Notes under the pieces: generated by a model
Seen by the model: only the letters and a program-made list of their open reading frames with translations
What the model was told of the DNA's origin: nothing
The model's database searches: none
Translations under genes and position numbers: made by a program
NCBI GenBank assembly: GCA_949825025.1
Contig: OX463785.1
Span: forward strand, 6,613,979 to 6,677,978
DNA: 64,000 bases
Direction of reading: 5' to 3'
Source: Siphlonurus alternatus
Taxonomy: Eukaryota; Arthropoda; Insecta; Ephemeroptera; Siphlonuridae
In this document: positions 9,123 through 55,883 of the stretch, one piece after another
How positions within the stretch are numbered: the first letter of the stretch is position 1
How the letters are laid out: every line of letters begins with the position of its first letter

Positions 9123-12100
9123 ATGTCAAGTCAATTCAACCTTCTGAACTACCAACAAAGTACGGAGATTCTGAATGTAAAGACACCGGCAGACGAGGCG
9201 TCACTCTCCGGGAGATCTGCCTCGCACACACCCCCGACGTGGCGAAAGACGGGGGCAGCTCACCATCCACCACTGCGCCGTGCCGTGTTGATGATACGAG
9301 CCTCGCGGTCTACAAACTTGTTGAATCGGGGGCTGAGATCTGAGTTTGGGTCATTGACCTCACTACCTAGAAGCCTGGGGTCAAATTCCTCCTTACATAG
9401 AGGTCCAAGTCCATCCTTACACAGGGGTCTGGGTTCAACCTCAACCCTGCACAAAGGGTCAACTACCTCGCTGGGCAACTTAAATAGTCCACTCAGATGT
9501 TGTTGCTGCGGCAAACCTGCGCCGGATGACGTCATCGTACCAAAGACACCCGTAAGTTCCCCCATAGTTCAGTAAGTTATTAAACTTAATTATTAGTAAA
9601 CTTATTAGTACAAAAATGAGCTTACAATTTAATGTGTCCATCTCACGTCACAGGAGCCTCCTGAGGATCTTCACGCGGGACAGAGGAACCCGGACGGCAG
9701 CCTCACCCCTGTGGGCCTCGCGTGGCGAACGCTGCACATCAGCAGGGCGAAGTTGAGGGCCGCCTCCACCACCTCGGAGCTGCTCTTCGGATTTGCCATA
9801 GTGAGTCTGAACGTGCACACCATGCAGTTTTTATGTAGAATGTACAACATGATTATCACATGCAAATTTAATTACATTATACTTAGATGTAAAATATTAA
9901 TAATGTATTTAATTCTGTCATTTATGACATACAATTATATAAGCTATTTAATTGTTTTATAATTACTAATAGAAATATGAAAAAAATAATCAAGCTAACC
10001 AGCTTGAAAATGTTAATTTGAACTATTTTTTTCCCTCATTTTTTAATCAATTTATAAATAAATAGTGCAATTTATAAAAAAAATATGACTTGATAATTTA
10101 TTTGTTCATTAATTCGTTAATCTTTCGTGTTGCAATGGATTTGCTAATTTCGCTGGGTTCGTTTAATGGACAACCTTCTTGAAATTTTTTATTGCACATA
10201 ATTTGATATATATAGAGTATACCTCGAGTTATGAATTATTTATTTTTTTTTTTTTTCAGAATTTTTTGAACCCTCTCTAACACCCTTAAAATCGAGGGAA
10301 AGCCGCTGTGATGTCGTAGTCACGCAGCGTCCTTTCCTTATAACCTTGCGTATTAAATATTTGACGTCACAGTGTTGGATCTTTCCCCTCAATTTTGAGG
10401 GTGTTAAGGCGGATTCACATATATGGTGATTTTTATTATGCGACGCGAATAATGCGCACTTGCTATAAAACCCATTGGCGGCCATATTTGGCGATTAAAA
10501 GAAAAAGATCATCGTAATCAACGCGATTCCCGGCGAATTCGCCACCGCATAGGATTTCACAGCTTTTACGTCAAAATCGCGTCGCATCGCCGCGTTGTCA
10601 CCATCTGAATCCACCTTAATCGCGTCGCATAATAAAAATCGCCATGTGAATTCGCCATAAAAAAAAAAATCTAAAAATTGACAATACATAACTCGAGGTC
10701 CTCTATATTGAAATAAGTAAAAATCTGATGAAGGTTCATTGTACCCAAGCTCATTTTTAATTAACTCGTTATCCATGTTTCAGATCGCACTGGTTGAGCT
10801 TCAGATCAACCAACCCACCAACATTCCCGATGGACTGTTCGTGCTGTTCTCCGCTAGTTCCACCTTGCTGGTAGCGGTGCACATCTTCGCGCTCATGATC
10901 ACCACGTACATCCTGCCCAACATTGAAGTGGTGACACGCATCCACCCCAGCGCCCTCCTCGAGGAATCCCCACACCACAAAATGAAGGTCTTTGTCGAGA
11001 TGGCGTGGGCGTTCTCCACCGTTATCGGAATGTTCTTGTTTCTTTTTGAGGTACGTAACTCAGGGATGGAGGGGGATGGGAGGATTTCAGGGTTTGAATC
11101 CTAGCTGCCCCCGAAGGAAAAATACATGTGAAGTAGATGAGATGATCCTCCTTTAACCACCTGTCTCTCCCCTCCCTTTTTCCCTGCTGGACTCTTTTTC
11201 TCTATATAGTCCAGGAAAATTAAGTATTATGGTGGGCAAAAATAGTAAGAAGCTGAAATTTGGTACACATATGCCTGGATAGTACACGAGTTCCCAAAAA
11301 AAAGTCCCCTAAAATCCCCTTTGAGGAAACAAAATTACGGGACATTTCCCGGAAAAACATAGTATTTATCAAAAATATTTTATTTCTAGGCAACCAACGA
11401 TCATGCATGACTTGATAAAATGTTAAATTAGAACTAATTTAGCACAAAACACTTTCCAAAAAAATTATCCCTCTTCAATGAATAGTTTCCAAAATATCCC
11501 TGAAATTTACAAGGGGAATATTATTAAGGGATTTTGAGTTTCAAATTACTCTGCAAATATGCAAAGTATCAAAAATAATGCCATTATAAAACATAATTTG
11601 AATTAAATATTTTATACAATGCAGTTTATTTGAAAGCGCTAATGCGTTTCGTTTTTGAGTTACGGGATTTTGGAAATCTTTTAACAATCAAAAAGTGGGC
11701 GTGGCCCGGCTCCATGTATGTATTATGCTTTGTATAAATGAGGAAAATATCGTGCCTCTTTATAGTTGACATGGAGTGTGTGACACCACAAACAAATTTG
11801 ACCCTTCCATACCCCTCCCCCCCCCCCAAAAAAAAATACCCCCTACCCTTGTTTAAAAAAATTAATGTTATGGATGAATTTGTGTCTGGAAGATTAAGAT
11901 CGTTGGAATAAAAAATTAAATAATGCTATTTTTATACACCCTCCTATACCTCCCTTTTGCATCCCCCCCCCCCCCACATAAAAATATATTTTAGGAAAAC
12001 GCATTATTAAAAATACATATTACATTTTAATATTTCTTGCATGTATATTTTAAAGTATTAATTAACGTTTTCTATAAAAGTATTCTTTTTGGTAATAATA

Positions 12101-15100
12101 ATCGTAATGACTATAAAATATAAATGACTTTGTTATTATTTATTTATAAATGCTTGGACCAGATCAGAATTATATGGCATTCCGAAGAGTGTACATACAT
12201 CGAAGAAGAAATGTTAAGAATAATCATTTTTGCAATTAACAAAATATAACATTAATTAAAATATAGTCACGGAACACAACCTTTTCAAAAACTGGATACA
12301 TACACTATAATATTATATTATAGCATATAATAATAATAATAATTTTAATAATAATAATAATAATAATTTTATTTCGATACTGGTTGTACAATACAACATT
12401 GATCACGTCACAAATAAACATATGAACCTTAAAATACACAATAAAATTCATTATCAACATAAGAAATGTCTTATATCACTATAAAATACTTGCACATTTT
12501 TTAACCATCTTGAAGACACTGTTCTGAGAGTTTATTTGCAAAAAACATTTTAACTGAATAGAATTCTTTCTTAATAAGTACATCTTTAAGCTTCGTTTTA
12601 AACAGAATATCACTCTCAATATTTCTTATACATGCTGGCAAAAAATCATAAATTTTTGCCGATTGGTAGAGTGGACTTTTTTCTAATAATGCAGATTTAT
12701 GACTTACAATAACAGTTTTCTCCTTATTTCTAGTTTGGTATACATGGTTTTGATGTTCATACAATTCGAAATGTTTTCTTTTAAATAATGCACAGCTTAA
12801 TACATACATACATGGTAATGTGAGCATATTATTATTTTTAAAATGAGTAACACATGAGTCTCTCTTTTTAAACCTTAACATTGTTCTCAGTGCTCGTTTT
12901 TGAGCTATAAATAACCTTGAAATAGATTGCTCATTTGATCCATAAAAAATTAAGCCATATGATAGGTGCGAGTAAACGTACGCATAATAAATCGAAAATA
13001 ATGCTTCTAATGATACATGGTCCCTTATTGAGTATAGAACAAAATTGCCTGAGTTTATTTTTTTTAATTTTTTTTTTTATATGAGATATTATGCTTTTAA
13101 TGTTAATTAATTTTGATTATATAACAGAAACATAAAACTATCTGTTATTTTATCTGTGTAATTATCTGTTATGGCATTTACTAAGAATCATTTAAGATAG
13201 AATTATTACATTTAGATTTTTCAACAGCATTATTATGTTGCATTTAAAAAAAGTTGATTTATATTTTATAAATATATTACCTCCCCATAAATCAGCATGA
13301 TACGAACATAATGTGACGTACCACATATATTTTTATGAAAAACTTTTAACCATAAAAATTATCATACATTCATAATTATTTTATTATATAATTAAATTGA
13401 ATGTATTTTACTCTTTCTAGTATACTTCAAGATATAAACGTTACAATTTTAGTACCTACTGAATTATTAAATCTACTCATATTCCGTATGAAGTTAACAC
13501 TTACTAGACACTCGATTTATGAAATCAATCATTGAAAATTAACTTATGTATATAATTATTATATTGGGCAAGGTTTACAAACATACAGATACTGACCTCT
13601 ATTGATACATAATTTATTTTCGAGTTGGAGCTGACAAATTACGAAGATTTCTAAATTGTTTACAGCTAGTAATTTTATATTACGAATACAATTCAAATGT
13701 TGTGAACAAATATAAAAAGAATATATTACATATTTTATGGTAACAAAAGGAAATGACTTTAATTTTAATTCGATCGTAATCGCGTATCATACGGTGGACA
13801 AATTAATTTATTAGTTATTTAGGAAATATCAGCTTTATGTATATTATATTCGTATAATACGGTATAGCTGAGTCAAGGAATGTGTACCTACCGATTCATT
13901 AAACAAATTAGATTCCACCTTTATAGTTATAAAAGCATGCGATTATTATTAATGCATTCACATATATATATTAATTAATTTGTCTTCTTAAAATTATAAG
14001 AACTAAAATAAAACGTGACGAACGAGAATTGTATGGTGATAATGTTCATTGTTTCATATAATTTATATAAATATGTTGTTTAGGTGCAGCTAGACTATCG
14101 TTGTTATTGGAAGTAGGGGGAGCGGGAAGGGGTCAGTTGAATGGGGTTGGGGAGAGGTAAAGGAGGGTGTATACAAGTAGCATTATTTAATTTTTTATTC
14201 CAACGATCTTAATCTTCCAGACACAAATTCATCCATAACATTAATTTTTTTAAACAAGGGTAGGGGGTGGGGGTGGGGGTATTTTTTTTTGGGGGGGGGA
14301 GGGGTATGGAAGGGTCAAATTTGTTTGTGGTGTCACACACTCAATGTCAACTATAAAGAGGCACGATATTTTCCTCATTTATACAAAGCATAATACATAC
14401 ATGGAGCCGGGCCACGCCCACTTTTTGATTGTTAAAAGATTTCCAAAATCCCGTAACTCAAAAACGAAACGCATTAGCGCTTTCAAATAAACTGCATTGT
14501 ATAAAATATTTAATTCAAATTATGTTTTATAATGACATTATTTTTGATACTTTGCATATTTGCAGAGTAATTTGAAACTCAAAATCCCTTAATAATATTC
14601 CCCTTGTAAATTTCAGGGATATTTTGGAAACTATTCATTGAAGAGGGATAATTTTTTTGGAAAGTGTTTTGTGCTAAATTAGTTCTAATTTAACATTTTA
14701 TCAAGTCATGCATGATCGTTGGTTGCCTAGAAATAAAATATTTTTGATAAATACTATGTTTTTCCGGGAAATGTCCCGTAATTTTGTTTCCTCAAAGGGG
14801 ATTTTAGGGGACTTTTTTTTGGGAACTCGTGTACTATCCAGGCATATGTGTACCAAATTTCAGCTTCTTACTATTTTTGCCGACCTCGCTTATGCATTTC
14901 GTCCTAATATTCCTGGACTAATATACACCGATGGCTACATAAAGCCAATGTTAATCAATTAATTAGTGCGGTGGAAATGCTTATATTGCCTATGTTAAAT
15001 CCAAAATTTCGGGCACCCCCAATACCCCCCCCCCAAATTTTGGATTTAAAATGGGCAATATAGGCATTTTCACCACTCCCAACTTTTTTTTAGCATTGGC

Positions 15101-15455
15101 CCCCTCCCCCCATTGAAATTTTGTTTTGAATTCGCGCCTGCATGACGGTCGGATCCTTTAAAGTACGGTAAAATTAGTTTCGTTAGTTGTACTGAAGTTA
15201 AATTCAGCATCTAATATTTAAATGTGCCCTCAGGTGACGCTGCTGGCCTGGATGAAGTTCTGGGACTACGCTTTGGCAGCCTCCATCTCAGCCACGGTGA
15301 TCGTGGTACCCGCCATCTTGCTCTTCGTCGCTTTCGCGGTCCACTTCTACCACACGTTGGTGGTGCACAAGTGTGACGTCACCAGCAATGACCTTGAACA
15401 GCTAGAGGTCATAAGACGAGAACTTGACACGGTTCAACGAAAAGAGAAAGATTGA
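9123..15455 (+). CDS. Orai: Orai calcium-release-activated Ca2+ channel subunit, copy 1
   Basis: Pore subunit of the store-operated (CRAC) channel in the plasma membrane, opened by STIM on store depletion. Coding exons: 9123-9551, 9654-9800, 10784-11050, 15234-15455; every intron is phase 0; 354 residues. The ATG lies exactly at an acceptor, after a non-coding exon ending at 8704. Residues 1-143 form a Ser/Arg-rich tail with repeated SLHRG-like motifs and a CCCC cluster. The channel core begins at GLAWRTLHISRAKL (the human ORAI1 WRKLYLSRAKL helix). The pore glutamate (human E106) is E197 in IALVE, the TM2 histidine (H134) is H225, the TM3 glutamate (E190) is E281 and the TM4 proline (P245) is P307. 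Human R91 is Thr here. The TM3-TM4 loop is very short, and the tail LEQLEVIRREL resembles the STIM-binding coil. The last intron (4.2 kb) holds a 3.7-kb inverted-repeat element. Confidence 0.92.
10225..10710. mobile_element. Palindromic MITE interrupted by a second element
   Basis: The outer arms CCTCGAGTTATGAATT and ACATAACTCGAGGTCCTC belong to the family of 28385-28625. From about 10404 to 10660 another element lies inside (GGCGGATTCACAT at left, ATGTGAATTCGCC at right, with mirrored TTATTATGCGACGCGA). That inner family recurs as the outermost element at 36126-38311. It lies in the intron before TM1 of Orai copy 1. Confidence 0.65.
11204..14924. mobile_element. 3.7-kb inverted-repeat element in an Orai intron
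   Basis: The left arm (about 11204-11955) and right arm (about 14160-14924) are inverted, nearly identical copies of roughly 730-760 bp; outer ends match at TAGTCCAGGAA. The loop of about 2.2 kb contains a LINE fragment (12330-13060). The matching 60-residue frames at 11220-11408 (-) and 14708-14880 (+) are the same stretch of the arm read twice and look non-genic. No transposase is visible. The element is wholly intronic and could fold into long double-stranded RNA in the Orai pre-mRNA. Confidence 0.8.
12330..13060 (-). pseudogene. LINE (non-LTR retrotransposon) 3' fragment with reverse-transcriptase C-terminus
   Basis: Read on the - strand from about 13055, the peptide runs through YYAYVYSHLSYGLIFYGS, then LFIAQKRALRTMLRF, then TLPCMYVL and HVYQTRN, ending near 12501. 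This order (thumb-like YxHLxYGxxxxG, QKxALR, TLPxxYxxE-type helix, H-x-Y-x-T-R) is typical of the region after the catalytic core in CR1/RTE/jockey-like LINE proteins. The catalytic YADD part is missing, so the copy is 5'-truncated. A (TAA)n-type tail lies at 12330-12370. A second 3' fragment of the same family is split across 36324-36424 and 37980-38279. Confidence 0.7.
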
Positions 15456-16980: not shown

Positions 16981-17000
16981 TTTGGTTGTAACTTGGGTTG

Positions 17001-17074
17001 TGACGTCAGTGTGTACTCACCAGGACTGTAGTGTATCCTGGCTTATCTCAGGGTTTGTAAAGAACGCATGCGCG
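17001..17074 (+). promoter_or_regulatory. Putative promoter of second Orai gene (CRE and NRF1-like motifs)
   Basis: TGACGTCA at 17001-17008 and ACGCATGCGCG at 17064-17074, with the same spacing to the first-exon donor as in copy 1. Conservation of the motifs inside a duplicated block is visible; regulation by CREB/ATF or NRF1 is inferred. Confidence 0.5.
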
Positions 17075-17090
17075 AAATATCACACACCTG

Positions 17091-17145
17091 AGCACCACCT
17101 ATTACAGGAAACACGAGCAGAAAATTGCAAGCAGCAAATTGGAAG
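17091..17145 (+). other. Non-coding first exon of second Orai gene
   Basis: It matches the first exon of copy 1 and ends GCAAATTGGAAG before the donor GTAAGA at 17146. The left limit is approximate. Confidence 0.6.
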
Positions 17146-17332
17146 GTAAGAGAACTGTCAACTCATTTTAATAATATACATGTGAACCTCAAATTATATT
17201 ATCTCAGTGGTAAATATATTGTAGTATAAGACAGGCGATTTATCATAATAGCATTTTCATGAATTAATTGCAATCTAATTATTATTCCACTCAAGGAGGT
17301 ATATTGATTAAATCATCTTATCACATCTATAG

Positions 17333-20227
17333 ATGTCGAGTCAGATGAACCTTCTGAACCACCAGCAAAGTACGGAGATTCTGAGGGCTCGGTTACCGGC
17401 AGACGAGGCGTCACTTCCCGTTAAATTTGCCACTCAAACACCCCCGACGTGGCGAAGAGCGGGGACCCTGAATGTAGAGAGACCGGCAGACGAGGCGTCA
17501 CTCTCCGGGAGATTTGCCCCGCACACACCCCCAACGTGGCAAAAGACGGGGGCAGCTCACCCCCCACCACTACGCCGTGCCGTGTTGATGATACGAGCCT
17601 CGCGGTCTACAAATTCGCTGAATCAGAGATCTGAGTTTGAGTCATTGACCTCACTACCTAGAAGCCTGGGGTCAATTTCTACCTTAAACAGGGGTGTGGG
17701 ATCCAGTCCGTCCTTACACAGGGGTGTGGGGTCAATGTCAACCCTGCGCAAAGGGTCAACTAACTCGCTGGGTAACTTAAGACAGCCACTCAGATGTTGT
17801 TGTTGCGGCAAATCTGCGCCGGATGACGTCATCATACCGGAGACGCCCGTAAGTTCTCAATGGAAATCCCCCTTAGTTCTGTACTTAAACACACGAGCTT
17901 ATTGCAATTTAATGTGAATGTCCATCTCACGTCACAGGAGTCTCCTGAGGATCTTCACGCGGGACAGAGGAACCCGGACGGCAGCCTCACCCCTGTGGGC
18001 CTCGCGTGGCGAACACTGCACATCAGCAGGGCGAAGTTGAGGGCCGCCTCCACCACCTCCGAGCTGCTCTTCGGATTTGCCATGGTGAGTGGTGATAGTA
18101 GTTTTATATAGAATATACAGTCATCGCCTCGGAAAATTTCCCTTTGCAGCCTTGTTAATCACCATGTCCCATGTTATTCTTACGGGGCATGGTGATTAAC
18201 AAGGCTACAAAGGGAAATTTTCCGAGGCGACGATTGTACAAAACATAGTTATAAATTATAATATACGTATATTTACATGCAAATTTAATTACAGTAAGGT
18301 GTTAGATGCAATGTACTTTGCATGGATATTTTATGCATTTAATTTCGCCATTCTGTCATTTATGGCATATAATTATAATGTTTACGTAATCACATATCGC
18401 ATCGAAGCTTTTTTTCTTCCTCATTTTAAATCAATTTATAAATAAATAGTTAAATTGCTGAATATGACTCTATAATTTAAAATTACAGCACCTTAATTAA
18501 TAATTACTATCTCTATTGAACGAATATTATAGTTTCATTATTAAGATTGAGCGTGACGCATGCAGTGCATTGACCGGTTCTCTTTAGATCACCAAAGTCA
18601 AGCTATAATACGTCAAGCGTGCATGTTTAGTACTGCATGGTGCTAAACTCGTTTCAATTATACGTTGCTCCCTCCCTGGAGTAAATTTGTCTCGCTTTCC
18701 ACCCAGTACAGTGATGCACTTGTGTGTAGTTCCCCAGACTTTGGACAATGCTTTAGTCCATTGAGAAAAAGTAGAAGTGTCCGTTGTTGAGATTTTCCAC
18801 GGTTCCCTCAGTCTCACCTCAGCGAATGCTGGGATGCGTAGGCCATGCACCATCCTTTTCCCCCTGATTTCTACCCATTATTAAATTTGCTGATAGGTTC
18901 ATTAATTACATCGAGCTCTTAGTTTAAATTTTAAATTGATTCTAGTTTTTGTTATTTTCTGCATGTTTCAGATCGCACTGGTAGAGGTGCAGATCAACCA
19001 GCCCACCCACGTTCCCGAAGGACTGTTCGTGCTGTTCTCCGCTAGCTCCGTGCTGTTCGTGACGGTGCACATCTTCGCGCTCATGATCACCACGTACATT
19101 CTGCCAAGCATAGAAGTGGTGACACGCATCCACCCTAGCGCCCTCCTCGAGGAATCCCCGCATCTCAAGTTGAAGTTCTTTGTCGAAACGGCGTGGTTTT
19201 TCTCCACCGTCCTTGGAATGTTCCTGTTTCTTTTTGAGGTAAGTAATTCAAGGAAGGAAGTGGGGAGCCGCAGGCGTGGATCCAGGGGGGGGGGGGAGGA
19301 GGGAGGGCTGGGGGCCAAATTTTGGATTTAACATGGACAATATAGGCATTTCCCCCACTCCAAATTTTTTTTTAACATTGGCCTTATGGAGGCAGCCCCT
19401 CCCGAAATTTGTTTCTGGATCCGCGCCTGGAGAGCCGTAGTTTCAGGGTTTGAACCCCGTCTCAGAGAAAAAATAAATGGGGAGTGGGTGAGTTGATCCT
19501 TATTTAAAAAAGTTATAAATATGGTGCAAGAATGAATGCAATGTACGCAGTATCAAAGTAAAAGTCATGCACCCAAAGGTACTCGTAATTTTTGTGGGGT
19601 AATTCCCAGCATAAGGATTTTCAAGACCTTTTTCCTGAAAAACAGCTCCGTATTTTTTTTTAAATTAAATAAATAATGCATCATCAGATGACATATAGGT
19701 ATGTATATTTTAATTGGTACCATTCTTCACACGAAATTCGAGAAAAAAAGTTGTTTTCTGTACCATGATATGGATGTGAAATTTTTTGGTTTTCATTTCT
19801 CAATAGAAGGATGGTTGAAATATTTTTAGAAAATAAAATCTTCACAAAAAATACAATAGCTCACTCTACTTTAATTTTTTTGCGATATCTTTTAAACCAT
19901 GCAGCACGGAAATATTTTTCAATATATATAATAATATAACATAGCTGTACGTTTAGATTTAAAGTCCATCACTGCCCCTAACCAAAGTCCACTGGATGTC
20001 CACAGGTCACGTTGCTGTCGTGGATAAAGTTCTGGGACTACGCATTTTCGGCCGCACTCTCAGCCACGGTGTTCATGGTACCCGCCATCTTGCTCTTCGT
20101 GGGCTTCGCGGTGCACTTCTACCACACGTTGGTGGTGCACAAGTGTGACGTCACTAGCAATGACCTTGAACAGCTGGAGGTCATGAGACGAGAACTTGAA
20201 ACTGTTAATCGAAAGGAAGGAGAGTAA
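17333..20227 (+). CDS. Orai: Orai calcium-release-activated Ca2+ channel subunit, copy 2
   Basis: Tandem paralogue of the gene just upstream, with the same exon plan: 17333-17848, 17938-18084, 18972-19238, 20006-20227; all introns phase 0; 383 residues. The ATG is again at the acceptor. The N-terminal exon (172 residues) contains a tandem repeat of a 29-residue unit with core PADEASL and TPPTW, present once in copy 1; otherwise it has the same SLHRG-type motifs and CCCC cluster. The channel core keeps the pore glutamate (E226), TM2 histidine (H254), TM3 glutamate (E310) and TM4 proline (P336). Human R91 is Thr, as in copy 1. It ends LEQLEVMRRELETVNRKEGE. A likely polyadenylation signal AATAAA is at 20696. 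Introns are short because the 3.7-kb element of copy 1 is absent, although two small MITEs have inserted. Confidence 0.92.
18116..18238. mobile_element. Short hairpin MITE in Orai copy 2 intron
   Basis: Inverted arms TACAGTCATCGCCTCGGAAA and its mirror, with AGCCTTGTTAATCACCATG in the stem. Relatives: 33442-33553 and 46175-46272. It is absent from the matching intron of copy 1, so the insertion is younger than the duplication or was lost there. Confidence 0.75.
18690..18865 (+). mobile_element. Candidate SINE copy (c)
   Basis: It shares the left part CCCAGTACAGTGATGCAC and the core with copy (b) and is truncated on the right. Located in the intron before TM1 of Orai copy 2. Confidence 0.5.
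19271..19429. mobile_element. hAT-like MITE, CAGGCGxGGATCC ends
   Basis: Ends CAGGCGTGGATCCAGG and CTGGATCCGCGCCTG, flanked by GGGAGCCG (19263-19270) and GAGAGCCG (19430-19437): an 8-bp target duplication with one mismatch, as made by hAT transposases. It sits in the last intron of Orai copy 2; the homologous intron of copy 1 runs on without it. Confidence 0.85.
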
Positions 20228-23368: not shown

Positions 23369-24528
23369 GAGTGACATTCATATTTTCCAAGGGTTCCTTT
23401 TTATTAAAATCAGAAAATGCCTAAAATATTTACAACAGAATCCAATAGCTTTTGCTTCAGATTCAGATTCAAAAGGCTTTTATTCAGAAAACATATGTTA
23501 CAATACAAGTTTGGGTTTAAGTACAAGACTTTTTAACCGGATCAGCCATAAAAAAATGTAAAAGAATACATTATTATGCATTGAATAAAAAATACATATG
23601 AGACATAATTTCAGTTTAAATAGGAAATGTTCTGCTTGATTACATTTAATAAGTTTTTATTGTTGTTCTTTCGTATAGATAATATATTGTCGTTATTAAT
23701 TGCACACACTGCAATATATTGCACTGACACTTTTATGATGAGAGCGGCTTTAAATTGCACTTCACTGCCCCTCTTTTTTTAAGATAGCTTTTGTTTTTGG
23801 ACAATCCCCTGTAATTTATGCAACTTGTCTAACGTAGCTGTGCTTTTGGAAGAGGTTGCATAACTTCAGGGCTATTTGTGTTAAAAATTGCGAAATTAAA
23901 ATCCACAAAACAGCTCACAAAAGGCTGTTGATATTTATTCTTATCTAAACGTACTGATGCCGTTGTTACTGTTGATTTTTTTTTTACAAGTAAACAATTA
24001 TCATACGACTATGACTATGTGGAGAGGTTCAACTTGCGTAACAAACCTTCTTTCTCTCTCGGTGTTCAAATAACTCGTTCCATGTTAGTCATCCATCTTA
24101 AGTAATTTCAAGATAGAGAAAATACAGTAATTTTAAGGTTTGTGTTTTGTTGTTTTTTGACAAGGGCTACTTATATATATAATATAATTTGTTGATACAG
24201 TTTCATTTTAAAGAAATTATTATAATGTATAATATTTAGCTTTCAGCAGTATAACAATGGTTTTAAACGCTATTGGATATAGTATTATATATATTTTTAA
24301 AATATATTTATAAAAAATAAATGTGTGTACGTATATATGTATATATTATTTTTTATTTTCACAGCAACAGAATGAAATTAATATTCATTTAATTTTTGTA
24401 TCTACGAATAATTTCAGCACTTGCAAAAGTTATTAAAAACAACAAAATATAAAAAAAACATGTTTATATAAAAATATAAAAAACACGTTATGGTGGTGTT
24501 CAGGTGTTACGATTTTGTTTGCTCCAGG

Positions 24529-27500
24529 ATGAGCGACATCCCTCACGGGGTAGAAGAGTGTGGATCATCCCTGGAGGATTCTACCCCCCAGATACCCCCT
24601 CGTTCCAGAAAGGTTTCTCGCGAGAAGCTAAAGAAAAAAACCGCCTCACGAGCGCCTCCGCCCCCTCCACCAGTCTCAGTAAAAACGGCTCCTGAGGAAG
24701 ACTCCAGCAGAGAAACTAACATACTTGAGAAATCAGTTTCACGCGAGGACATAATAGAACAATCTTTTTTAAATAGTCAAGCTCTTTATTGTGAATTGGA
24801 AACTACTCAATGTCCAGTCTCTATAGTGCTTGCACCTGAGGAAGAGAAAATAGATAATATTGAAATTACTCAATATCCAGTCTCTGTAGTGCTTGCACCT
24901 GAGGAAGAGAGAACAGACGTTGAAATTACTCAACGTCCAGTCTCTTTAGCACCTAAGGAAGAGAAAACAGATGACGTTGAAATTACTCAACGTCCAGTCT
25001 CTGTAGAGTATGGATCACTCCTGGAGAATTCCCTCCCTGCCTCCCCCCAGATACCCCCACGTTCCAGAAAGGCCTCTCGCGAGAAGCAAAAGAAAAAACT
25101 CACCCCACGAGTGCCCCCGCCCCCTCCACCATTCTCGGTAAAAACTGCTCCTGAGGAAGAATCCAGCAGAGAAACTAACATAATCGAGAAATTAGTTTCA
25201 GGCGAGGATGTAATAGAAAAATCTTTTTTAAATAGTCAAGCTTTTATTTCTGAATTGGAAACTACTCAATATCCAGTCTCTTTAGTACTTTCACCTGAGG
25301 AAGAGAAAATAGATGTTGAAACTATTCAATGTCCAGTCTCTGTAGTGCTTGCACCTGAGGAAGAGAAAACAGATGTTGAAACTATTCAATGTCCAGTCTC
25401 TGTAGTGCTTGCACCTGAGGAAGAAAAAACAGATGTTGAAATTATTCAATGTCCAGTCTCTTTAGTACTTGCACCTGAGGAAGATGACGTTGAAATTACT
25501 CAGTGTCCAGTCTCTGTAGCACCTAAAGAAGACGACCTAGAAATTATTTCAACATTATCTGAACTGGAAGGCCCTGAATTTGCTAATTTGGAACCTGTTG
25601 ATACAAGTTCAGGAGAGAGCGAAGGAACAGTTGACAGTAATCTTTACAGTTCTCTAAGATCACCACCTGAAGGTGAGGAAAGTACACCTGAAAATAGCAA
25701 CCTGAGTTCTTCAATTCAATCTTCAAGTTCAAACATAACAGTTGAAGAAGCGTCACCAAAACTAAAGGAGAAAACAGTAAAGGGTGCACCACCAAAAGTC
25801 CCTCCACGGCCGAGACATTTAAGTAAAAAGTATGGAATGTTGGCGTACTTCACTCCTAAAATACCTCCACAAATACTTAAATTATCGGAAAGATTACACA
25901 TACGGACTCATTATAAAAGTAGTAATAAGACAGAATCTCTGCCACGAAGCTTGCGATTGAACGGGGCTACGGGTGACAATTTGACGGAACATAACACATC
26001 TCCTCTTGCTGTGGTTGCACCCCTTCCAAACGTCATTGTTGCCGATAATTCAATACAAACTAACGAATTTGAAACACTGAACAATCGGAGAACTAAAAAT
26101 TTAACTAGTTTAAAGCGACCTTTTTCTTTACAACCACCTCAAGAGGGACATAGAGTTGTTACCAGAAGTAAGTCAGAGCCGATAAGCTGGGGAACTGAGG
26201 AAACTGCAGTCTGGAATGTCGAACCTTCAGAAACATCGATTGTAAAAATAGATTCTGTGGAGGAAGGTATACCTGAAGGTAGCAAATTAAAACAAAATGG
26301 TATATATAAAAATTTGCCTCAAAATGGTGTTTTTAACCCTGGTTTTATAGACGATGATTTGAGAATTATGAAAAATTTCAATATCAAAGGCTCTGATAAT
26401 ATAAACAAATCTAATTTAAATTCAAAAAACGTAGATGACAATATTTTAAGAGAAAATGGAGTTTTTAATGCTGGATTTATAAGTGATGATGCTGTAAACT
26501 CAAACACGTTACATGGCTTGAATTCCAAAAGTTCTCCGAATCCCTTCGCGAAGAAGGGGAAAAAGACACCTTCCCCCCACACTCCCCCCGGATCTCCACG
26601 ACCCCCCAGAAAGAAGAGAAATTTCTCCGGCTTAAAAGGTCACGTGGTTTTGGAGACTGACTCCCCTTCCCTCACCCCCCGGCCTGTTCGCTTCAACCCT
26701 ACCGGAGGTAACGTTCGACTGCGGCGAGCGGCGATGGTCCTGCGTGCCTCCCGCTCAGTAGCATCACTCTCCCCCAGCTTCGCCCAGCGGCACACCTCGG
26801 GGGAGTACTGTTGTCAGGACTGCAAGGTGGCGTTTACCTCCAACTCGAGTCTCGCTTCTCAGGTAAGTCCTGCAGAGTTTTTGGTTATCTGAATACATGT
26901 TGTTTTATGTCAAGAGCGGAACTGGAGAAATAACATCGCGGCTGTTAATTCCTTTGCAGGCGTGAGCTCATATATTTTAAGCTCTAACCTTATAGATTTA
27001 GAAGTATCTTTAGATTAATTTTTAAAAGCAAATGTCACTCGTTATAATATAAAGCATTAAATTGTATTTAATCATTCAATATAGTTTATGTTCATTTTTT
27101 TTTTTTAATTTCCATTTCTCATGAATAAATATGCTGGTAATTTATAATCAATTAAATACGATTCTTAACATGTACTGTACATATACTATTGTGCATAATG
27201 AACAATATAAATGAAATCTCTTATTGCATAAATGGAATTCAATGTTATATTACTCTGATTTTTTTCAGATTTTTTGAGACCGGGATCTATTTTTTAAAAA
27301 AATAAGTGAAAGCACAGTTTTCCATCATGTTAAAAAACTCTCATATGTGTGCATGTATCCGCTTATTAGTTTAACACTATCAGTATAGTAATTAAGTGTA
27401 CTCGCGCGCGGTTATCAATTATTTCAACGTGATTTAAATTCAAAATTGTGTGATAAACAGAAATTAATCATAAAAATTATAAAATTTTCCCGCTTATACG

Positions 27501-30500
27501 CTCAACAATTTTTTTTTTAAATACAACGAAAAAATGGCGAAAATGGATTATGGTCAACAACTTGTCAACAATCGTGAATGTCAACGTTTGAAAAACTGGA
27601 AGAGTGACGGGCCGTGACGGCTGAGAATTCATATATGGGACAGCAGTGGGGCAAGATGAAATATTCTTGTGAGTATACTTTTTAATGTACTTTTAACATT
27701 AATATAACATTTTATAGTAATTATTATTAATAATAATTAATAATAAGTTAAGTATAATAATTGTCATGGTATGTTAATTACCATAGGCTTTTTTCACAAT
27801 CACGCCGCAACGCCGCAACATTTTTGCAAAAAATTCAATCTCCCCTTGATTATCTTGTGGCGGTACATTTGTTGCGGCAGATGTTGCGGCATATATGTTT
27901 TTGCAGCAAAATCGGACTATGTGAAAGGAGCTTTAGGGCTATAAATGAAGCATTATAAGCATTAATTTTATTTTCCTTATTGTAATGTATTGCAATTATT
28001 TTAATTTTACCATTATACTCTTCAAAAACGTCACTATAGAATTTTATTTCTATTTTCTCATGTTTATTATACTGTACTACAGTTTTACATATTTCTCATC
28101 ATTGGAATAAGACTTTTATTATAGTAGAAAATTTATGCTTCAAAATTTTTATCAGAATTAGGTAGAAAACGCTTCTAATTTTATATAAATAAAATTATAT
28201 TGGACAGATCAATTTGACTAAAATCAGAAAACATTATTATTAATTTTTTTAATATGAAAAAAACAAAATACAAGCAAAAATCGCAAGTATGCATATAATC
28301 AAAGTGTATTTTTTAAATTTTGAAATATAATTATTATGTTATTTATTTTTTTTTTTTTTGCTTGTAGAACAATGCAGATTTATATATTTCATATAAAGGA
28401 CTTCGAGTTCAATTTTTTCTGATTTTTAGAACCTTCTAAAACCCTCAAAATCGAGGAGAAAGACGTTGTGACGTCATAATCATGCAACGTCTTCCCTATG
28501 CTTGCGTGTTAAATATTTGTATGACTATGACGTCACAGCGTTTTGTAGCACGATTTTAGAGGGTTGTAAGAATCTGAAAAAAAAATTACAATACATAACT
28601 TGAGGTCCTCTCTATTTAAATATGTAATAAAAATTTACACGAAGGTTCTAAATATTTTACTAACAAATGTTTTCAGTCAACGGCAAGGATATCAACGAAG
28701 ATGCTCCAATGGAGAACGAGGCGCGCCACGTGGATGAGGGCGTTGCCATGGACAACCAGAACTCGAGGAAGGACAAGACGCGTGGACACAAGCCTCACGA
28801 GTCGCTTGCCGAGGTGAAATAATTTGGAGATTGGTGTACTGGACACCACGAACTTTACTCCTGTTTTGTTTGTTGGAGTTACCACGAAGTCTATGATGGA
28901 GGCTTGGTGAAAAAAAAAACAAACTATTTTTATGTAGGTATAGACTTGACTCCAAAAACTACAAATCTTCATCTCTGTCTATTGTAGCTACAACTCTAGC
29001 AAATGTGGCAGAAGTAAAGTTCGTGGTGTCCAGAGACAATGTTAAAAATTCACTTGATTTTTCATAAATAACTACCATATTTTTATAATATTAAATTTTA
29101 TATTACTGCAGATTTGTATTTATTGTTCCATATATATGTTTATAAATAATATTTCGTAGAAAAAAAGGATATATAATAAATTTTTATAATGTGCACTCGT
29201 CACCTCGGAACAGTCCTTGAATTAATCGATGCATACAACTCCTTTTTAAAAAAAAAAAAAACATTAATTTTTCTCTATTTTTCATTCATTTTGCACACCT
29301 GCACACCCCACGTCTTTCTTTTCTCTGGCCCGACATTTCTTACTTTATCTGACCCTCACCAAATGGTCCAAAAATACATTGAAGGTGTTACCGCCCCCAA
29401 CCCGTTGCCCTCGATCCCCACCCTCTCCAAAATTTAACATTACGGGATAGGGCACCGCCCCCCTCAGATTTGCGCTCTGAATCCGCTGCCCCTGACCCTC
29501 ACGTTTGTTCGCAGGACTCCATCGAGTTGACCAACGACAGCCTGTTGCTGCGGACTGAAGATGGACTCGAGTGTATCATTAAGCTGAAATTCTCGGGTCG
29601 CTCTGTGATTGGTGGAGATATTAATCTACGTCACAGCGCCTACTGCAGACATTCGTACGGCATCACTTCAAAAAACGGCTGGCGAATCACCTCGTCCGCT
29701 CCGGGCAAATTTCATGTAGACTCTTATAACACCCACGGACTTAACAAGATCAATCTGTGTTCTAATCTAACTCAAATTAACATCTATATTAATTCTCTTG
29801 CAACCATGGTCGAGATGAATACACCGAATAGCGTCAAGCGTCAGTGTTTCAATGTACAAGAAAACGGACGTTTAGTTCCAGCTACTGGCAACCAACAAGT
29901 TTCGTCAGTTGTAAAAACTACGTTAGATCAACTGACTGTCAAGCGTGGACATGATGTCAAATTTGACGGAGGAGAGTTAGAATCTCATGAAGGGAGATTT
30001 GGCAAGCGCTTGCGAATGACGGCTCAAGATGCTCTGGTTCAGGAAACTTTCGCTAGTGGTAGCACCATCGACCTTGAGGAAGATTCATTAACCGTGAACA
30101 ACCAAAAGGCCATGGAAGATGAGGCCATAAAGACCTTACAAGAAGAGGGCAAAGACACCGTGCAATATGAGGAAATTTTAGAGGCCTTGCAAGAAAAAGA
30201 AACAGAGGCCATCATGGAAAATGAGGCCATAAAGGCCTTGCAAGAGGAGGTTACAGACACCGCGCAAAAGGAGTCTGTAGAGGTCATGCAGGATGAGGCC
30301 CCCCAGACTTGGCAAGATGAGGTCAATTCCTAAGAGTAGGGATTTCTGATCGAGCTCTAGCCCTCTCTCATGAAATTCGACAAGCATATTCTTTACATTC
30401 CATTTGTTTTTATTTTTAATATTTCTAATATCATGCGCATTTTTACAATAACTTTTGGATATAACTTTTGTCGTAGTATGATTTTCATTAAATAAAAATT

Positions 30501-33500
30501 ATATTTAATTAAATATAACATATATTGTGTATTACTTATCACTTAATACAAATTACTTAATTACACGCTGTCTCAATTATTTCTTTTAATTACTTACAGG
30601 AGAATTTACATTATTATCTTCTTTTTATATATACATGTATGCAGGTCATTGTTAAAATAGCATGAGTAAAATAATTAAGCAATCGATTTTGGAAAATTCT
30701 TTTTTTATATAATAATATATAATTATAAGTTCTGTTATATAAGTCTTTCTCAATTTTATGGCAGTAAATATTTTTCAGAAAATATGAAAAAGGAATAATG
30801 AAAATGTATAAATGCTGTAAATTTTATGATAAAATTGCATAATAGAATGGACAACATACATGAAATTTTTTTATTGCAGAAATGAATAGAGGGTACCAAA
30901 TTATGCTAATCTGAATTCTTTCAGATTTTTTTGAGACCCAGAACTATTTTTAAATAATTATTGGAAGTGCGGCCACGCCCCCTGGAGGCGTCAGTAGGCG
31001 TCCAGTCTCTATCCTTTTTATTAAGGCTGCAGGGGTGCCAACTGAAATCACAGGACTTTAAATAATTATTTAAAAATAGTTCCGGGTCTCAAAAAAATCT
31101 GAAAAAATTCAGAGTAGCATAATTTGGTACCCTCTATTCATTTCTGCAATAAATTTTTTTCATGTATGTTGTCCATTCACTTTAATTACTTTTTTTTAAT
31201 GTTCCATTACGAGTGAAACATAAAAACCTTTGATAAAAAGTAGAAGTGTCCGTCCTGACTGAGGTTTTCCATGGTTCCCTCAGTCTCACCTCAGCGAATG
31301 CTGAGACGCGAAACAGGCCGTGGCCACCATCCGTTCCCTACCTTATCCCTACCCATTATACCCCGCCGCGAGTTGTAAGCTCTTAGAGGTGCATCCTTGT
31401 AATATATATAATATATTATAACAAGGATAAGTTTTATAAATTTTTTATGATAACGAAAATTTTAATTTTTCTCTTTCAAATTAATCTGCTTTTGAAATCA
31501 TGGTTATTTTGCTTTAAAGTTTCAAAATTGACGCAATATTTTGTTCATGAAACATGATGCATTGTCTACTTGCACAAAACAATTATACATACATTTTATA
31601 AAATAAATATTCTACGTTTACTTTTCTTTTCAGTTCTTATTTTTATCAACGAAAACAGCAAAAAATATTAGAAACATTAAAAAAAATGAAGCACGTACGA
31701 TTATGATGACATCTGCATTGAAACCGAAAAGAAGTTTTCCTCAATTTTTTAAAGCTATTAATTCCTGATGGGCTTATTAAAGGAAAATGTATAATTTTTT
31801 AGTTAATTAAGTTATATAAAAAGGGGAATTTACAAGGACTTTTAGTCCCGATTTAGAGCTCACTAAATTCTGTCATGAAAAATTGTGCCTGAAATCAGGC
31901 TTTGAGCCTTTGTGAATGCTCCTTATAATGTTTAAAAAAATTGTCATGTGCTTATCTACGTGCCCCACGTCAACAGTCACGTAACGTGTGTCTGACCCAC
32001 AGCCCCACGTGAAGCACGAGGACAGACAGGTAGACACGGATGGTAACCTCACGCCAATTGGTCAACGATGGCACGAACTCCACGTCAGCAAAGCTCGTCT
32101 GAAGACCGTATCAAGCACGTCAGAGCTGTTTGCTGCCTTTGCTATGGTACGTTAATCATGATATGAGGGTGGTTTTTATTGCATGGAGAAAGGAGGAGTA
32201 CAGTTCACTTCATACCAGAATTAGTTTGTTAAAAATCATAACGGAATCTCAGCTCGTAAGTCAGCTGATTTTGCTAAAAAAAAAAAACATGTTTTTTTAG
32301 CATTTATAAATGAATTTTTTTTAAGGAAAATAATTTTTTTATTCATTTTATCAGGAGATCCGGGAGGTAGTAGGTATTTTCAAATCAATATATAGTTTTA
32401 AGGATTCATGAGAGAATTAATCATAAAGTTAACCAGCTTTCTCACTAGCCACGGTTAGAGCCAGCCTAATTCAATTACACTAAACGTGCAGTTATTGTGA
32501 GAAACCTGGATCTTCGTGAATCGTGCACAAATTAATATATAACTCTTGAGAAAAAATAAAATAAAAGATCCTATAACATGGTAGCTTATGGAGAAAAATT
32601 TCTCCACCGGGAAACACTTGAATCCTCAAGCTTGTCGTAAAATTTTTGTTATGACCGCGGTTACAGATCGCGCTAGTGGAGATGCAAATCAACACACCTT
32701 GCACAGTTCCGGACATCGCCTGGATTTTGTTCTCGATCAACACGACAATGATTGTGGGAATCAACATCCTGGCCCTCATGATCAGCACGTACATCCTGCC
32801 TAACATCCACGTGGCCACGAGTCTCCACCCCAGCGCCTTCCTCGATGAATCCCCGCACTACAAGATGAGAAGGTTCGTCACAACCGCGTGGACCTTCTCA
32901 AACTTCCTGGGACTGATGCTCTTCTTTGTGGAGATCGCCCTCATCAGCTGGGTCAAGGTAAGTCTCCCCGTCAGGTTAGGCAACTTGTCAAGCATTAAAC
33001 TATAGCAGGTTGCATAATCAGCTAGGGGTGGATCCAGCGTGCGACTCGGGGGGGGGGGGGGAAGGGGAGGCTATGTTGCAATGTTAAATTTGGAGTGAGA
33101 GGATGGGGTGACGGGTGGGGGGCGGAAATACCTTCAATGAATTTTAGAATCTTTGGGGGGGGGGGGGATCGCCCTATCTTGGATCAAAGCCTGTTAACAG
33201 CAGGGAACCACGGTCCCGCAAACCATGCGTAAAAAATAACTCGATCGATCATTACGAGTATACAATATATATCAGTTTAAAAAAGTTTTAGAAGGTTTTC
33301 TACTTGACTAAATTTTTCAAACTTGCTAAAGCTAGGCTTCAATTATTTTAATCAGTCTTAAAAATAACTTGACTTGAAGCTTCGATATATAATTTAATTA
33401 ATGAATATAACATTGGTCAAAATAATATCGTTTTTATAAAATATACTCGTTGCCTTAAAAAATTTCCAACTTGCATGCAGCCTTGTAAATCACTATGCCC

Positions 33501-35258
33501 TTTGTTATTCTTACGGGGCATGGCAAAGGGAATTTTTTTTAAAGCAACGAGTATTCATTTAACTAAATGAATCCAAGTTTTATTGTTCTCATGTCCTGCA
33601 GTTTTGGGACTTGGCAGTGGAGGGTGCGATCATCTCGACCGCGATTGTAGTTCCCTCTCTGGTCGCTTTCATCGCCGTGGCGCTGCACTTCAACCGCCAC
33701 CTCGAGGTTCCCGAACGAGCCCCTGCTAGACCCGAACTTCGGCAGGAGGTTCTCCCAGGTGACAGGGGACAGGTAAATTCAAGACCTTGTAAAATAACAT
33801 TTTCTGCTTTAAATTTAACAAAAAAATTAAAAGAAATTTGTGTCCGAACTGTCCAGGCTGGATCTGCGGAACAGAACGCGGACGGCAGCCTCACACCACG
33901 GGGTCTTCGGTGGCGCTCTCTGCACATCAGTCTGGCGAAGCTCCAAGCCTCTTGCTCAACCTCTGAGCTGTTGGCTGGATTTGGTCAGGTACAATTAATT
34001 AAAAGCTTTTTATTTCAGCTTACGACTTATAATATGGCGCTCTGATTGCATGAGTTAATTAATTGGCCAACCCCACTTCCTAATTGAGGTATAAATTAGC
34101 GCGACTTACAGGCGCGGATCCAGAAATTAATTTCGGAAGGTGGGGGGGGGGGGGCGCCTCTATCAGGCCAATGGTAAAAAAAATTGGAGTGGGGGAAATG
34201 CCTATATTGCCCATGTTAAATCCAAAATTTCGGGGGGGAGGGGCTGCAGCCTCTCCAGCCCCCCCCCCCCCCCCCCCTTGGATCCACGCCTGGCGACTTA
34301 CAACAGTTAGTAATCCATAAAATGTAATATATGCCTACAATGGACGACCTACATGAAAATTGTTCATATTGCATATTTTGATAGACGATCGACCTTTAGT
34401 TAATGCATTGTCAATTTTGGTCAGATTTTTTTGAACCATTGAACACCCTCAAAATCGAGGGGAAAAAACTGTAAGTAGTAAGTACGTCATAGTAGTCATG
34501 TAATGTACGTCCTTTAATTCTCTATGCTTGGCATATTAAAAAAAATATTTGTATGACTATGACGTCACAGCGTTTTGTAGCATGATTTGAAGGGTGTTAG
34601 AGGGTTTGAAAAAATATGAAAAACGAACTCGAGGTCCTTTATCCTAATATAAAAAAAAAAAAAATCATGAAGGTTGTTCATTAAAATGAATTATAAAAAA
34701 AATAATATAAATATATTGCAGATGGCGATGGTGGAATTGCAGACCAACACGCCCACGTTAATCCCGACCTGGATGTTCACCCTCCTGGCAGTTAACACCA
34801 CAGTACTGGTGCTCGTTCACGTGTTCGCACTTATGGTCAGTACGTATCTTCTGCCCAGTGTAGAGGCGATCGAGAAACATCGTACCAGCAACTTGATCAA
34901 CAATTCACCACATGAGCAGATGCGACATTACATCGAACTCGCCTCTGCTGGCTCCACGGTCTTTGGAATGATCCTTTTCCTCTTTGAGGTCGGCATACTC
35001 TGTTGGATCAAATTCTGGGACTTCACCTTTTATGGATCAGTAGCCTCGTCAGCAGTCATTGGAGTAGCGCTTCTTGTATTCATGGGCTTCGCGGTGCACT
35101 TCTACCATACATTGGTGGTGCACAAGTGTGACGTCACCAGCCATGACCTTGAGCAGCTAGAGGTCATGAGACGAGAACTTGAAGTACAAGAGGATGATGT
35201 CAGCAATATGGTGATAATCAGTTGTGATGTCAGATCAAATGACGAAAAAATTATATAA
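24529..35258 (+). CDS. Orai: Tandem-dimer Orai: long repeat-rich N-terminus fused to two Orai channel cores
   Basis: Coding exons 24529-26862, 32003-32146, 32667-32957, 33602-33772, 33857-33988, 34722-35258; every junction is phase 0; 1202 residues. Start: ATG at 24529, one base after an acceptor. Residues 1-778: SH3-ligand-like proline runs (PPPPPP, KVPPRPR), about nine copies of a CPVSVVLAPEEEKTD-like acidic repeat inside a duplicated block of about 160 residues, an NPF motif, and LRRAAMVLRASRS, which matches copies 1 and 2. Core 1 (residues 779-980): pore glutamate E831; TM2 histidine replaced by N859; TM3 glutamate E915; TM4 proline P941; no typical STIM-binding tail. Core 2 (residues 981-1202): E1029, H1057, E1113; human W176 is S1099, P245 is V1139; tail LEQLEVMRREL present. 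No stop or promoter separates the cores: the join is an 84-nt intron. Alternative: unrecognised alternative ends produce single cores as well. Confidence 0.85.
27230..27310. repeat. Half copy of the AATGGAGTATCGACCTCA MITE family
   Basis: TTACTCTGATTTTTTTCAG and ATTTTTTGAGACCGGGATCT match one arm only; the partner arm is missing. Confidence 0.5.
27635..30333 (+). CDS. Unidentified three-exon gene nested in the fused-Orai intron, possible N-myristoylated protein
   Basis: Exons 27635-27668, 28677-28813 and 29515-30333 splice through donors GTGAGT and GTGAAA and good acceptors with matching phases (1, then 0), giving 329 residues. The protein starts MGQQWGKMKYS; Gly2 with a basic residue after it fits the N-myristoylation pattern and recalls the first residues of ABL1b, but nothing else resembles ABL. 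Residues 13-57 are hydrophilic; residues 58-150 (start DSIELTNDSLLLRTEDG) look like a compact domain I cannot name; the C-terminus (about 260-329) is acidic and helical with repeats of EAIKALQEE type. AATAAA at 30490 would end the transcript. Exon 28677 cannot follow the 778-residue Orai exon, because phase 0 gives an early stop. A downstream ATG in the same frame is at 27656. Confidence 0.6.
28385..28625. mobile_element. Palindromic MITE with internal TGACGTCA sites
   Basis: Mirrored arms: CTTCGAGTTCAATTTTTTCTG with AACCCTCAAAATCGAGG on the left, and AGAGGGTT with ACTTGAGGTCCTC on the right. TGACGTCA occurs at 28469-28476 and 28528-28535. Relatives: 10225-10710 and 34375-34640. Confidence 0.65.
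30845..31178. mobile_element. Palindromic MITE, variant of the AATGGAGTATCGACCTCA family
   Basis: Ends GAATGGACAACATACATGAA and CATGTATGTTGTCCATTC. The inner blocks (GATAGAGGGTACC-like, TTTCAGATTTTTTTGAGACC) match the family while the outermost 20 bp differ. Confidence 0.75.
31235..31405 (+). mobile_element. Candidate SINE copy (d)
   Basis: Shared core from GTGTCCGTCCTGACTGAGG to CCCGCCGCGAG, then AGGTGCATCCTTGTAA. It lies in the long intron of the fused Orai gene. Confidence 0.55.
33442..33553. mobile_element. Short hairpin MITE in fused-Orai intron
   Basis: TATACTCGTTGCCTTAAAAA is mirrored at the right; the inner block GCATGCAGCCTTGTAAATCAC is shared with 18116-18238. Confidence 0.65.
34109..34292. 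mobile_element. hAT-like MITE with perfect 8-bp target duplication
   Basis: Ends CAGGCGCGGATCCAG and TTGGATCCACGCCTG, flanked on both sides by GCGACTTA (34101-34108 and 34293-34300). Same family as 19271-19429. It lies in the intron just before TM1 of the second core of the fused Orai gene. Confidence 0.92.
34375..34640. mobile_element. Palindromic MITE with TGACGTCA
   Basis: Relative of 28385-28625, with AACACCCTCAAAATCGAGG on the left, TGACGTCA at 34560-34567 and ACTCGAGGTCCTTTATCC on the right. Confidence 0.55.

Positions 35259-54075: not shown

Positions 54076-55883
<1,808 letters not shown>

What the first reader, a model, noticed from the sequence alone, without database searches (positions are those of the whole stretch)
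32003..35258. Two Orai channel cores fused in one reading frame: a natural tandem-dimer Orai
Seen: exons 32003-33772 encode a full four-span Orai core, and exons 33857-35258 encode a second one. The first core has no stop; its last exon runs in phase 0 into the second core across an 84-nt intron, too short to hold a promoter and another N-terminal exon. Known: Orai channels are hexamers (crystal structure of fly Orai, arranged as three dimers), and concatemers have been built in laboratories to study stoichiometry. Inference: three such chains would make one pore with alternating core-1 and core-2 subunits, so pore composition is fixed by the gene. I know of no described natural fusion of this kind.
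Basis: partly seen in the sequence, partly recalled or inferred. Interest (0 to 1): 0.92.

Follow-up and report, generated by a model that had tools for sequence, protein, structure and literature searches.

The report
Natural two-in-one Orai calcium channel
This insect (mayfly-like) gene fuses two copies of the Orai calcium-channel subunit into one protein, something researchers had built artificially; a predicted gene in a distant mayfly has the same fusion, so it looks like an old, kept arrangement and not a chance join.

Summary
Exons 32003-33772 and 33857-35258 encode two complete four-span Orai cores (PF07856, 152.7 and 151.9 bits) in one frame. Core 1 has no stop: even the 84-nt intron after it is open in frame. 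No ATG lies in 33773-33988. The gene is larger than reported. A long exon (24529-26862) probably starts it, and two single-core Orai genes (A, B) lie upstream.

The main new evidence is a predicted 443-residue chain in the mayfly Ephemera danica with the same two cores in the same order. Core 1 pairs with core 1 and core 2 with core 2 (100/99, 100/98). Pairing within species is rejected (AU p 9e-7, 7e-5; groups not named before the tree), so the tandem most likely predates the split.

The cores diverge asymmetrically at known gating positions. Core 1 has H134N, V107M and no STIM-docking tail; core 2 has P245V/L and M101Q/T. My best reading is a natural concatemer, three chains per hexamer, with altered, perhaps STIM-reduced, gating. 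Gene structure and common ancestry rest on sequence. Expression, stoichiometry and gating are inferred.

The parts
24529..26862 (+). N-terminal coding exon of unit C (778 codons from the ATG of MSDIPHG; proline-rich and repeat-rich), ending in phase 0
   Evidence: Open frame 24472-26892. Its end carries LRRAAMVLRASRS and a CC motif like the N-terminal exons of A and B and of Cloeon and Neocloeon Orai (compared by eye). Its start codon and its junction to 32003 are inferred.
32003..32146 (+). Core 1 exon a: cytosolic N-terminal helix and start of TM1
   Evidence: AG/GT borders, phase 0, tblastn and Pfam match
32667..32957 (+). Core 1 exon b: rest of TM1 with the selectivity-filter Glu, TM2, TM3
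33602..33772 (+). Core 1 exon c: TM4 and linker, no stop codon, STIM-docking positions changed
33773..33856 (+). 84-nt linking intron, itself open in frame (28 codons, GC 26%)
33857..33988 (+). Core 2 exon a: cytosolic N-terminal helix and start of TM1; no ATG
34722..35258 (+). Core 2 exon b: rest of TM1 to C-terminus and stop (TAA)
   Evidence: AlphaFold2 model pLDDT 77.5, the 10 PDB matches with E <= 0.001 all Orai
35079..35183 (+). C-terminal tail of core 2, nearly identical to unit B 20096-20200 (7 base differences in 35 codons): gene-conversion-like tract carrying the STIM-docking coiled coil
   Evidence: (0 of 20000 permutations)
9123..15455 (+). Unit A: single-core Orai gene, exons 9123-9551, 9654-9800, 10784-11050, 15234-15455
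17333..20227 (+). Unit B: single-core Orai gene, exons 17333-17848, 17938-18084, 18972-19238, 20006-20227
   Evidence: the model was one base off at 17848 and was corrected

Best explanation
Unit C is a single gene whose protein (1202 residues if exon 24529-26862 is first) carries two Orai cores joined by about 45 cytosolic residues. Shown at sequence level: the open frame, the absence of any start for core 2, and the Orai family membership of both cores. Supported by tree and shared residues: common origin with the predicted Ephemera danica chain.

Inferred mechanism: the chain works as a natural concatemer. Three chains form one hexameric pore in which core-1 and core-2 subunits alternate, with all six filter glutamates present. 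The two cores carry different gating changes, as judged from human Orai1 work. Core 1 lacks the His134 brake and the C-terminal STIM dock; core 2 lacks the Pro245 TM4 kink and the Met101 gate latch. The channel is therefore likely to be gated differently from an ordinary store-operated Orai, with STIM recruited only through core 2, or not at all. The ordinary store-operated role is left to single-core genes such as A and B.
For: Gene structure. Each core matches Orai alone.

Ortholog with both cores in one annotated chain: P0001, Ephemera danica B566_EDAN004293. I scanned 128 proteins: 125 database hits (the 120 listed of 129, plus 5 new) and 3 from the window. Only P0001 and unit C hold two full domains.

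Same-position pairing across species: supports 100/99 and 100/98; 100/99 and 99/99 with the converted tail removed. Within-species pairing is rejected, p 8.9e-7 and 6.5e-5. At 121 conserved columns, residues not seen in any of 114 single-core Orai are shared 21 times by the two core 1s and 9 times by the two core 2s; within-species pairs share 4 and 6.

Selection: NG86 dN/dS 0.22-0.33 across all six pairs of A, B, C1 and C2. The filter Glu (dOrai 178) and the TM3 Glu (dOrai 262) are kept in all four tandem cores.

Gating positions: read with passages of PMC7825772 (P245 to any residue is gain of function; smaller side chains at H134 release the brake; V107M listed as gain of function), PMC6497303 (dOrai P288L, the P245 position, constitutively open), PMC7948504 section 11 (in linked dimers more than three gain-of-function subunits are needed for constitutive current) and PMC12893689 (one lost dock of six cuts opening about 90%).
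Against: There is no transcript or protein evidence. No two-core chain other than P0001 appeared in three protein searches, each cut to about 8000 candidates; 9 of the 129 hits were not listed. P0001 is itself a gene prediction, and its N-terminus looks mispredicted.

The AU groups were not named before the tree was seen, so those p values flatter the result. Long branches are in play: Ephemera core 2 4.68, Ephemera core 1 1.9, window core 1 0.91. In one search the core 2 pair's 9 shared novel residues are matched by Ephemera core 1 with unit A (9), so the core 2 pairing leans on the tree.

The tandem cores evolve fast (38 to 58 of 121 conserved columns changed), but so do A and B (31 and 33), against 11 in the Ephemera single. 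The asymmetry is not clean either: Ephemera core 2 also has Asn at H134, Ephemera core 1 has Glu at K87, and unit A, a single-core gene, has Ile at Met101.

dS of pairs with C1 or C2 is above 1.2, and the YN00 method failed for five of six pairs. PMC7679135 reports most M101 changes as loss of function, with M101Q among those exempted from the statement that STIM-fragment co-localisation and FRET were unchanged; this pulls against a leak. I saw no test of H134N. In the window, core 2 keeps a good STIM dock. The chain was not folded as a hexamer, and the model of P0001 is weak (pLDDT 64.5).
Confidence: 0.75

Rival explanations
1. Alternative splicing: the N-terminal exon (phase 0) is usually spliced straight to core 2 at 33857, giving a normal single-core Orai. 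The two-core form is then minor or absent.
For: All exons of unit C have lengths divisible by three and phase 0 borders, so skipping core 1 stays in frame. Core 2 of the window keeps a complete C-terminal tail.
Against: Core 1 has been kept open and Orai-like in two distant lineages, sharing 21 novel residues. It has no terminal exon, so it can only be made joined to core 2.
Confidence: 0.12
2. The two cores are in one chain but do not form an alternating three-chain hexamer. They mix with the single-core A and B subunits, or the two cores of one chain sit in neighbouring channels.
For: Intact A and B genes lie next door. The linker is long: 45 residues here, 60 in Ephemera.
Against: In solved Orai, C-terminal helices pair antiparallel with each other within the hexamer (passage in PMC10758431), so joined neighbours are the simplest arrangement. 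Laboratory linked Orai1 dimers do make channels (PMC7948504 section 11).
Confidence: 0.25
3. Core 1 is a decaying or regulatory core. It no longer contributes a working pore lining and serves as a dominant-negative or tether attached to core 2.
For: It has lost the C-terminal STIM dock (L276, V262, K265 changed in both species) and changed at 48 of 121 conserved columns in the window.
Against: The filter Glu and the TM3 Glu (dOrai 262) are kept. The Pfam score is as high as that of core 2, and NG86 dN/dS is 0.24 to 0.33.
Confidence: 0.12
4. Artefact: two adjacent genes merged by a gene model or by misassembly.
For: Tandem Orai arrays exist here, and gene predictors do merge neighbours (inference); P0001 is also only a prediction.
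Against: No N in the window. The frame runs through the junction even without splicing, and core 2 has no ATG and no first exon. The same order is found in another species' assembly.
Confidence: 0.04

Closest known systems
Single-core insect Orai (Drosophila Orai, PDB 4HKR; Cloeon and Neocloeon Orai)
   Same: Four-span PF07856 core, filter glutamate, cytosolic N-terminal helix; units A and B of this array are of this kind
   Different: One core per chain. Positions H134, P245 and M101 are each invariant in the 114 single-core Orai compared but changed in one or other tandem core; of the two single-core neighbours, unit A also has Ile at M101
Ephemera danica hypothetical protein B566_EDAN004293
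   Same: Two Orai cores in one chain, same order, each core pairing with the matching core here
   Different: Named only as a hypothetical protein; longer linker (60 against 45 residues); both C-terminal STIM docks look lost, whereas the window's core 2 keeps one; its core 2 also has H134N
Laboratory Orai1 concatemers (linked dimers and longer chains)
   Same: Orai subunits joined head to tail so that subunit order is set by the construct
   Different: Engineered from human Orai copies; here evolution produced the join and the two cores have diverged
Natural internal duplications in other channel families (two-pore potassium and two-pore calcium channels; recalled, not searched)
   Same: Subunit duplication fused into one chain, with halves that specialise
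   Different: Different families and folds; none is Orai

Membership tests
Orai family (PF07856) | Orai-1 domain above the curated cut-off | tested here: met
   Core 1 152.7 bits, core 2 151.9 bits, cut-off 25
Orai family (PF07856) | Filter glutamate (hOrai1 E106) in TM1 | tested here: met
   Present in all four tandem cores
Orai family (PF07856) | Four-helix Orai fold | tested here: met
   Sequence match to dOrai over TM1-TM4 for both cores. AlphaFold2 model of core 2 exon b: the 10 matches with E <= 0.001 are all Orai, TM-score 0.50-0.56 by query length. Core 1 of the window was not folded.
Orai family (PF07856) | Basic section of the TM1 pore | tested here: inconclusive
   At dOrai 155/157/159: window core 1 K/R/K, Ephemera core 1 S/R/E, window core 2 L/K/Q, Ephemera core 2 L/K/E
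Store-operated CRAC channel | C-terminal STIM-docking helix (L276 and neighbours) | tested here: inconclusive
   Changed in core 1 of both species, kept in window core 2, changed in Ephemera core 2
Store-operated CRAC channel | Activation by STIM after store depletion | not testable with these tools
   Needs recording
Orai hexamer / concatemer | Three tandem chains per pore | not testable with these tools
   Needs purified protein or photobleaching
Natural tandem Orai (proposed) | Two full cores in one open frame, no internal start | tested here: met
Natural tandem Orai (proposed) | Single origin of the tandem with the Ephemera chain | tested here: met
   with the long-branch and naming caveats given under evidence against

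The most novel reading that the evidence does not exclude
Evolution built an Orai concatemer in which every one of six subunits carries a change at a position whose alteration opens human Orai1: H134N and V107M in core 1, loss of Pro245 in core 2. The core-1 STIM docks are gone. The result is a calcium channel that is open, or easily opened, without store depletion, balanced by a second change (loss of Met101) in core 2. It would be a natural leak or differently gated Orai of mayflies, beside single-core Orai genes.
Probability: 0.3. Interest if true: 0.9.

Novelty: new variant of a known kind. Interest (0 to 1): 0.8.

Why it matters
Orai stoichiometry was disputed and was probed with artificial linked chains. 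Here nature seems to supply one, kept between distant mayflies, with two cores free to diverge in a fixed order. It makes subunit asymmetry in Orai gating directly testable. It also shows substitutions at positions linked to human myopathy (P245, V107) apparently kept in a living lineage.

Tried and rejected
Considered and rejected: two separate genes (no start, stop or first exon between the cores); misassembly; independent fusion in each species (AU test). Not settled: whether the two cores come from one ancestral core. All four as one clade is not rejected (p 0.126), and S97A and C126N are shared by all four. The trees instead put core 1 beside A and B, without a star (86/87; 88/90 and 91/84). 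A, B, C1 and C2 of the window as one clade is rejected (p 7.1e-5).

I considered whether unit C's N-terminal exon belongs instead to the small gene at 28667-30333. That gene has its own ATG and the exon carries an Orai-type N-terminus, so I did not favour this; RNA must decide.

AlphaFold2 on the Ephemera chain was too weak to use (pLDDT 64.5; core 1 mostly 74-87, core 2 poorer). The core 2 exon b model gives rmsd 2.8 to 5.8 to unlatched or open Orai chains and 7.1 to 10.6 to the closed 4HKR and 4HKS chains, but TM-scores differ little (0.52-0.56 against 0.50-0.53). I ran no control on a single-core Orai, so I do not count this as evidence for an open TM4.

In one search the human residue numbers printed for dOrai 231-274 are wrong by my crude shift (dOrai E262 is hOrai1 E190, recalled); I use none of them. 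The conversion of the others is recalled numbering. Four database proteins were skipped because my start motif was not found (P0009, P0019, P0048, P0064). P0001 and P0107 were set apart, leaving 114 of the 120 then held. The tree used 19 of those 120 proteins besides the Ephemera tandem and the four window cores.

No hit bore a name that I know as a dragonfly's or damselfly's, but 20 of the 120 listed have no name. 'Mayfly' rests on clustering with Ephemera, Cloeon and Neocloeon (95/99 with the tail removed; 88/84), so dragonflies are not excluded. Protein one search (lengths about 660-2100) found nothing.

Full report
What is there. Core 1 is 32003-32146, 32667-32957 and 33602-33772. Core 2 is 33857-33988 and 34722-35258, with a TAA stop. 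All junctions within and between the cores are AG/GT and phase 0. Each of the five exons is stop-free in its frame. Both cores score alike against Pfam Orai-1 (152.7 and 151.9 bits, cut-off 25), and each matches Drosophila Orai structures alone.

Why it is one chain. Core 1 has no stop codon. The 84-nt intron after it is a multiple of three and open in frame, so the frame passes into core 2 whether the intron is removed or kept. Such an open intron is not rare by chance (2414 of 20000 shuffles); it matters because it closes the last escape for a separate core 1 product. No ATG lies in any frame of 33773-33988, so core 2 has none before TM1. The exon at 32003 has no in-frame ATG between it and the stop upstream. 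A segment of about 230 bases shared upstream of units A and B (8552-8782 and 16998-17223, 85% identical) has no other match in the window; the region before unit C gave no match, and that before core 1 matched only dispersed repeats.

The wider locus. Three Orai units lie head to tail on the + strand: A (9123-15455) and B (17333-20227), single-core genes, and C. Unit C very probably begins with a 2.3-kb exon at 24529-26862 whose end resembles, by eye, the N-terminal exons of A, B and baetid mayfly Orai. The joined protein would be 1202 residues. The junction 26862 to 32003 crosses a 5.1-kb intron that holds another small gene on the same strand (28667-28813 and 29515-30333, model by eye), so it is inferred, not shown.

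Relatives. The best database hit is Ephemera danica B566_EDAN004293, 443 residues, covering 81% of the two-core query at 46% identity. It holds two cores in the same order. Of 128 proteins scanned with an Orai profile (125 database hits, 3 window), only unit C and the Ephemera chain hold two full domains. Cloeon and Neocloeon returned only single-core Orai. In the tree (25 rows) core 1 pairs with core 1 (100/99) and core 2 with core 2 (100/98). With the converted tail left out the values are 100/99 and 99/99; without Ephemera core 2 the core 1 pair stays at 100/99. Trees that pair the two cores within a species are rejected (p 8.9e-7 for the window, 6.5e-5 for Ephemera), though the groups were not named before the tree and long branches are in play. 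Shared residues point the same way: at 121 conserved columns, states not seen in 114 single-core Orai are shared 21 times by the core 1 pair and 9 times by the core 2 pair, against 4 and 6 within species. The core 1 signal is clear. The core 2 count is no higher than that of Ephemera core 1 with unit A (9). I conclude that the tandem most likely predates the split of the two lineages. Where the two cores came from is open: S97A and C126N (dOrai 169 and 198) are shared by all four tandem cores, while the trees put core 1 beside A and B without a star.

How the cores differ (hOrai1 numbers). In core 1 of both species: H134N, V107M, S97A, and changes at V262, K265 and L276 of the hinge and STIM dock. 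In core 2 of both: P245V (window) or P245L (Ephemera), M101Q or T, A100G, K87Q or E, R83L, S97A. P245, H134 and M101 are each invariant in the 114 singles. Against a clean split: Ephemera core 2 also has H134N, Ephemera core 1 also has K87E, and unit A has M101I. A and B have themselves changed at 31 and 33 of the 121 columns. From passages read: any substitution of P245 gives gain of function, smaller side chains at H134 release a brake, and V107M is listed as gain of function (PMC7825772). Drosophila P288L, the P245 position, is constitutively open with extended TM4 helices (PMC6497303). Most M101 changes abolish gating (PMC7679135). In linked Orai1 dimers one gain-of-function subunit of two is not enough for constitutive current (PMC7948504 section 11). 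One lost STIM dock in six cuts opening by about 90% (PMC12893689). Taken together, a hexamer of three chains would have a changed residue at one such position in each of six subunits and at most three STIM docks. That predicts gating unlike an ordinary store-operated Orai, but the M101 loss pulls the other way. These changes have not been tested in this protein, and I saw no test of H134N in any. I hold the leak reading at 0.3.

A side result. Thirty-five codons of the core 2 TM4 and tail (35079-35183) differ from unit B at 7 bases, while the whole 206-codon comparison has 227 differences; no permutation of 20000 reached this. Third positions are also alike (about 0.85 in the two 20-codon windows at its centre), so this looks like gene conversion between neighbouring units rather than selection on the protein alone. 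It gives the window's core 2 a STIM dock that the predicted Ephemera core 2 lacks.

Limits. There is no RNA. The genome search tool did not answer in eight tries. The protein searches scored about 8000 candidates each. dS between the tandem cores and the others is above 1.2, so NG86 dN/dS values of 0.22-0.33 are only indicative.

Novelty. The listings of six literature searches showed no natural Orai fusion (open-licence PMC full text; only the top 8 to 15 papers of each were seen). In the passages I read, 'tandem Orai' and 'concatenated Orai' mean laboratory constructs. I therefore rate it a new variant of a known kind.

Noticed in passing
35079-35183 and 20096-20200: Gene-conversion-like tract between core 2 of unit C and unit B (7 base differences in 35 codons).
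   Followed up: yes
28667-28813 and 29515-30333: Two-exon gene model (321 residues, own ATG, read by eye) on the same strand inside the first intron of unit C; no Pfam family above its cut-off.
   Followed up: partly
24799-25546: In-frame repeats of about 60 bases, and a 459-base near-duplication at 24584-25465, in the N-terminal exon of unit C; several proline-rich stretches.
   Followed up: no
8552-8782 and 16998-17223: Segment 85% identical upstream of units A and B, perhaps promoter and non-coding first exon; no copy found before unit C.
   Followed up: partly
32957/33602 against 11050/15234: The intron between TM3 and TM4 lies eight codons further on in core 1 than in A and B, and is missing in core 2.
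   Followed up: no
30845-31178: Near-palindromic dispersed element (79% identical to its own reverse complement) with copies near 21.1, 39, 40 and 63 kb.
   Followed up: no
46167-46481 (-) and 53818-54264 (+): Fragments of an RRM protein (PF00076) and a dynein light chain type 1 (PF01221).
   Followed up: partly
5611-5935 and 6615-7243: 131-base tandem repeats in two arrays whose consensus units look like reverse complements of each other.
   Followed up: no
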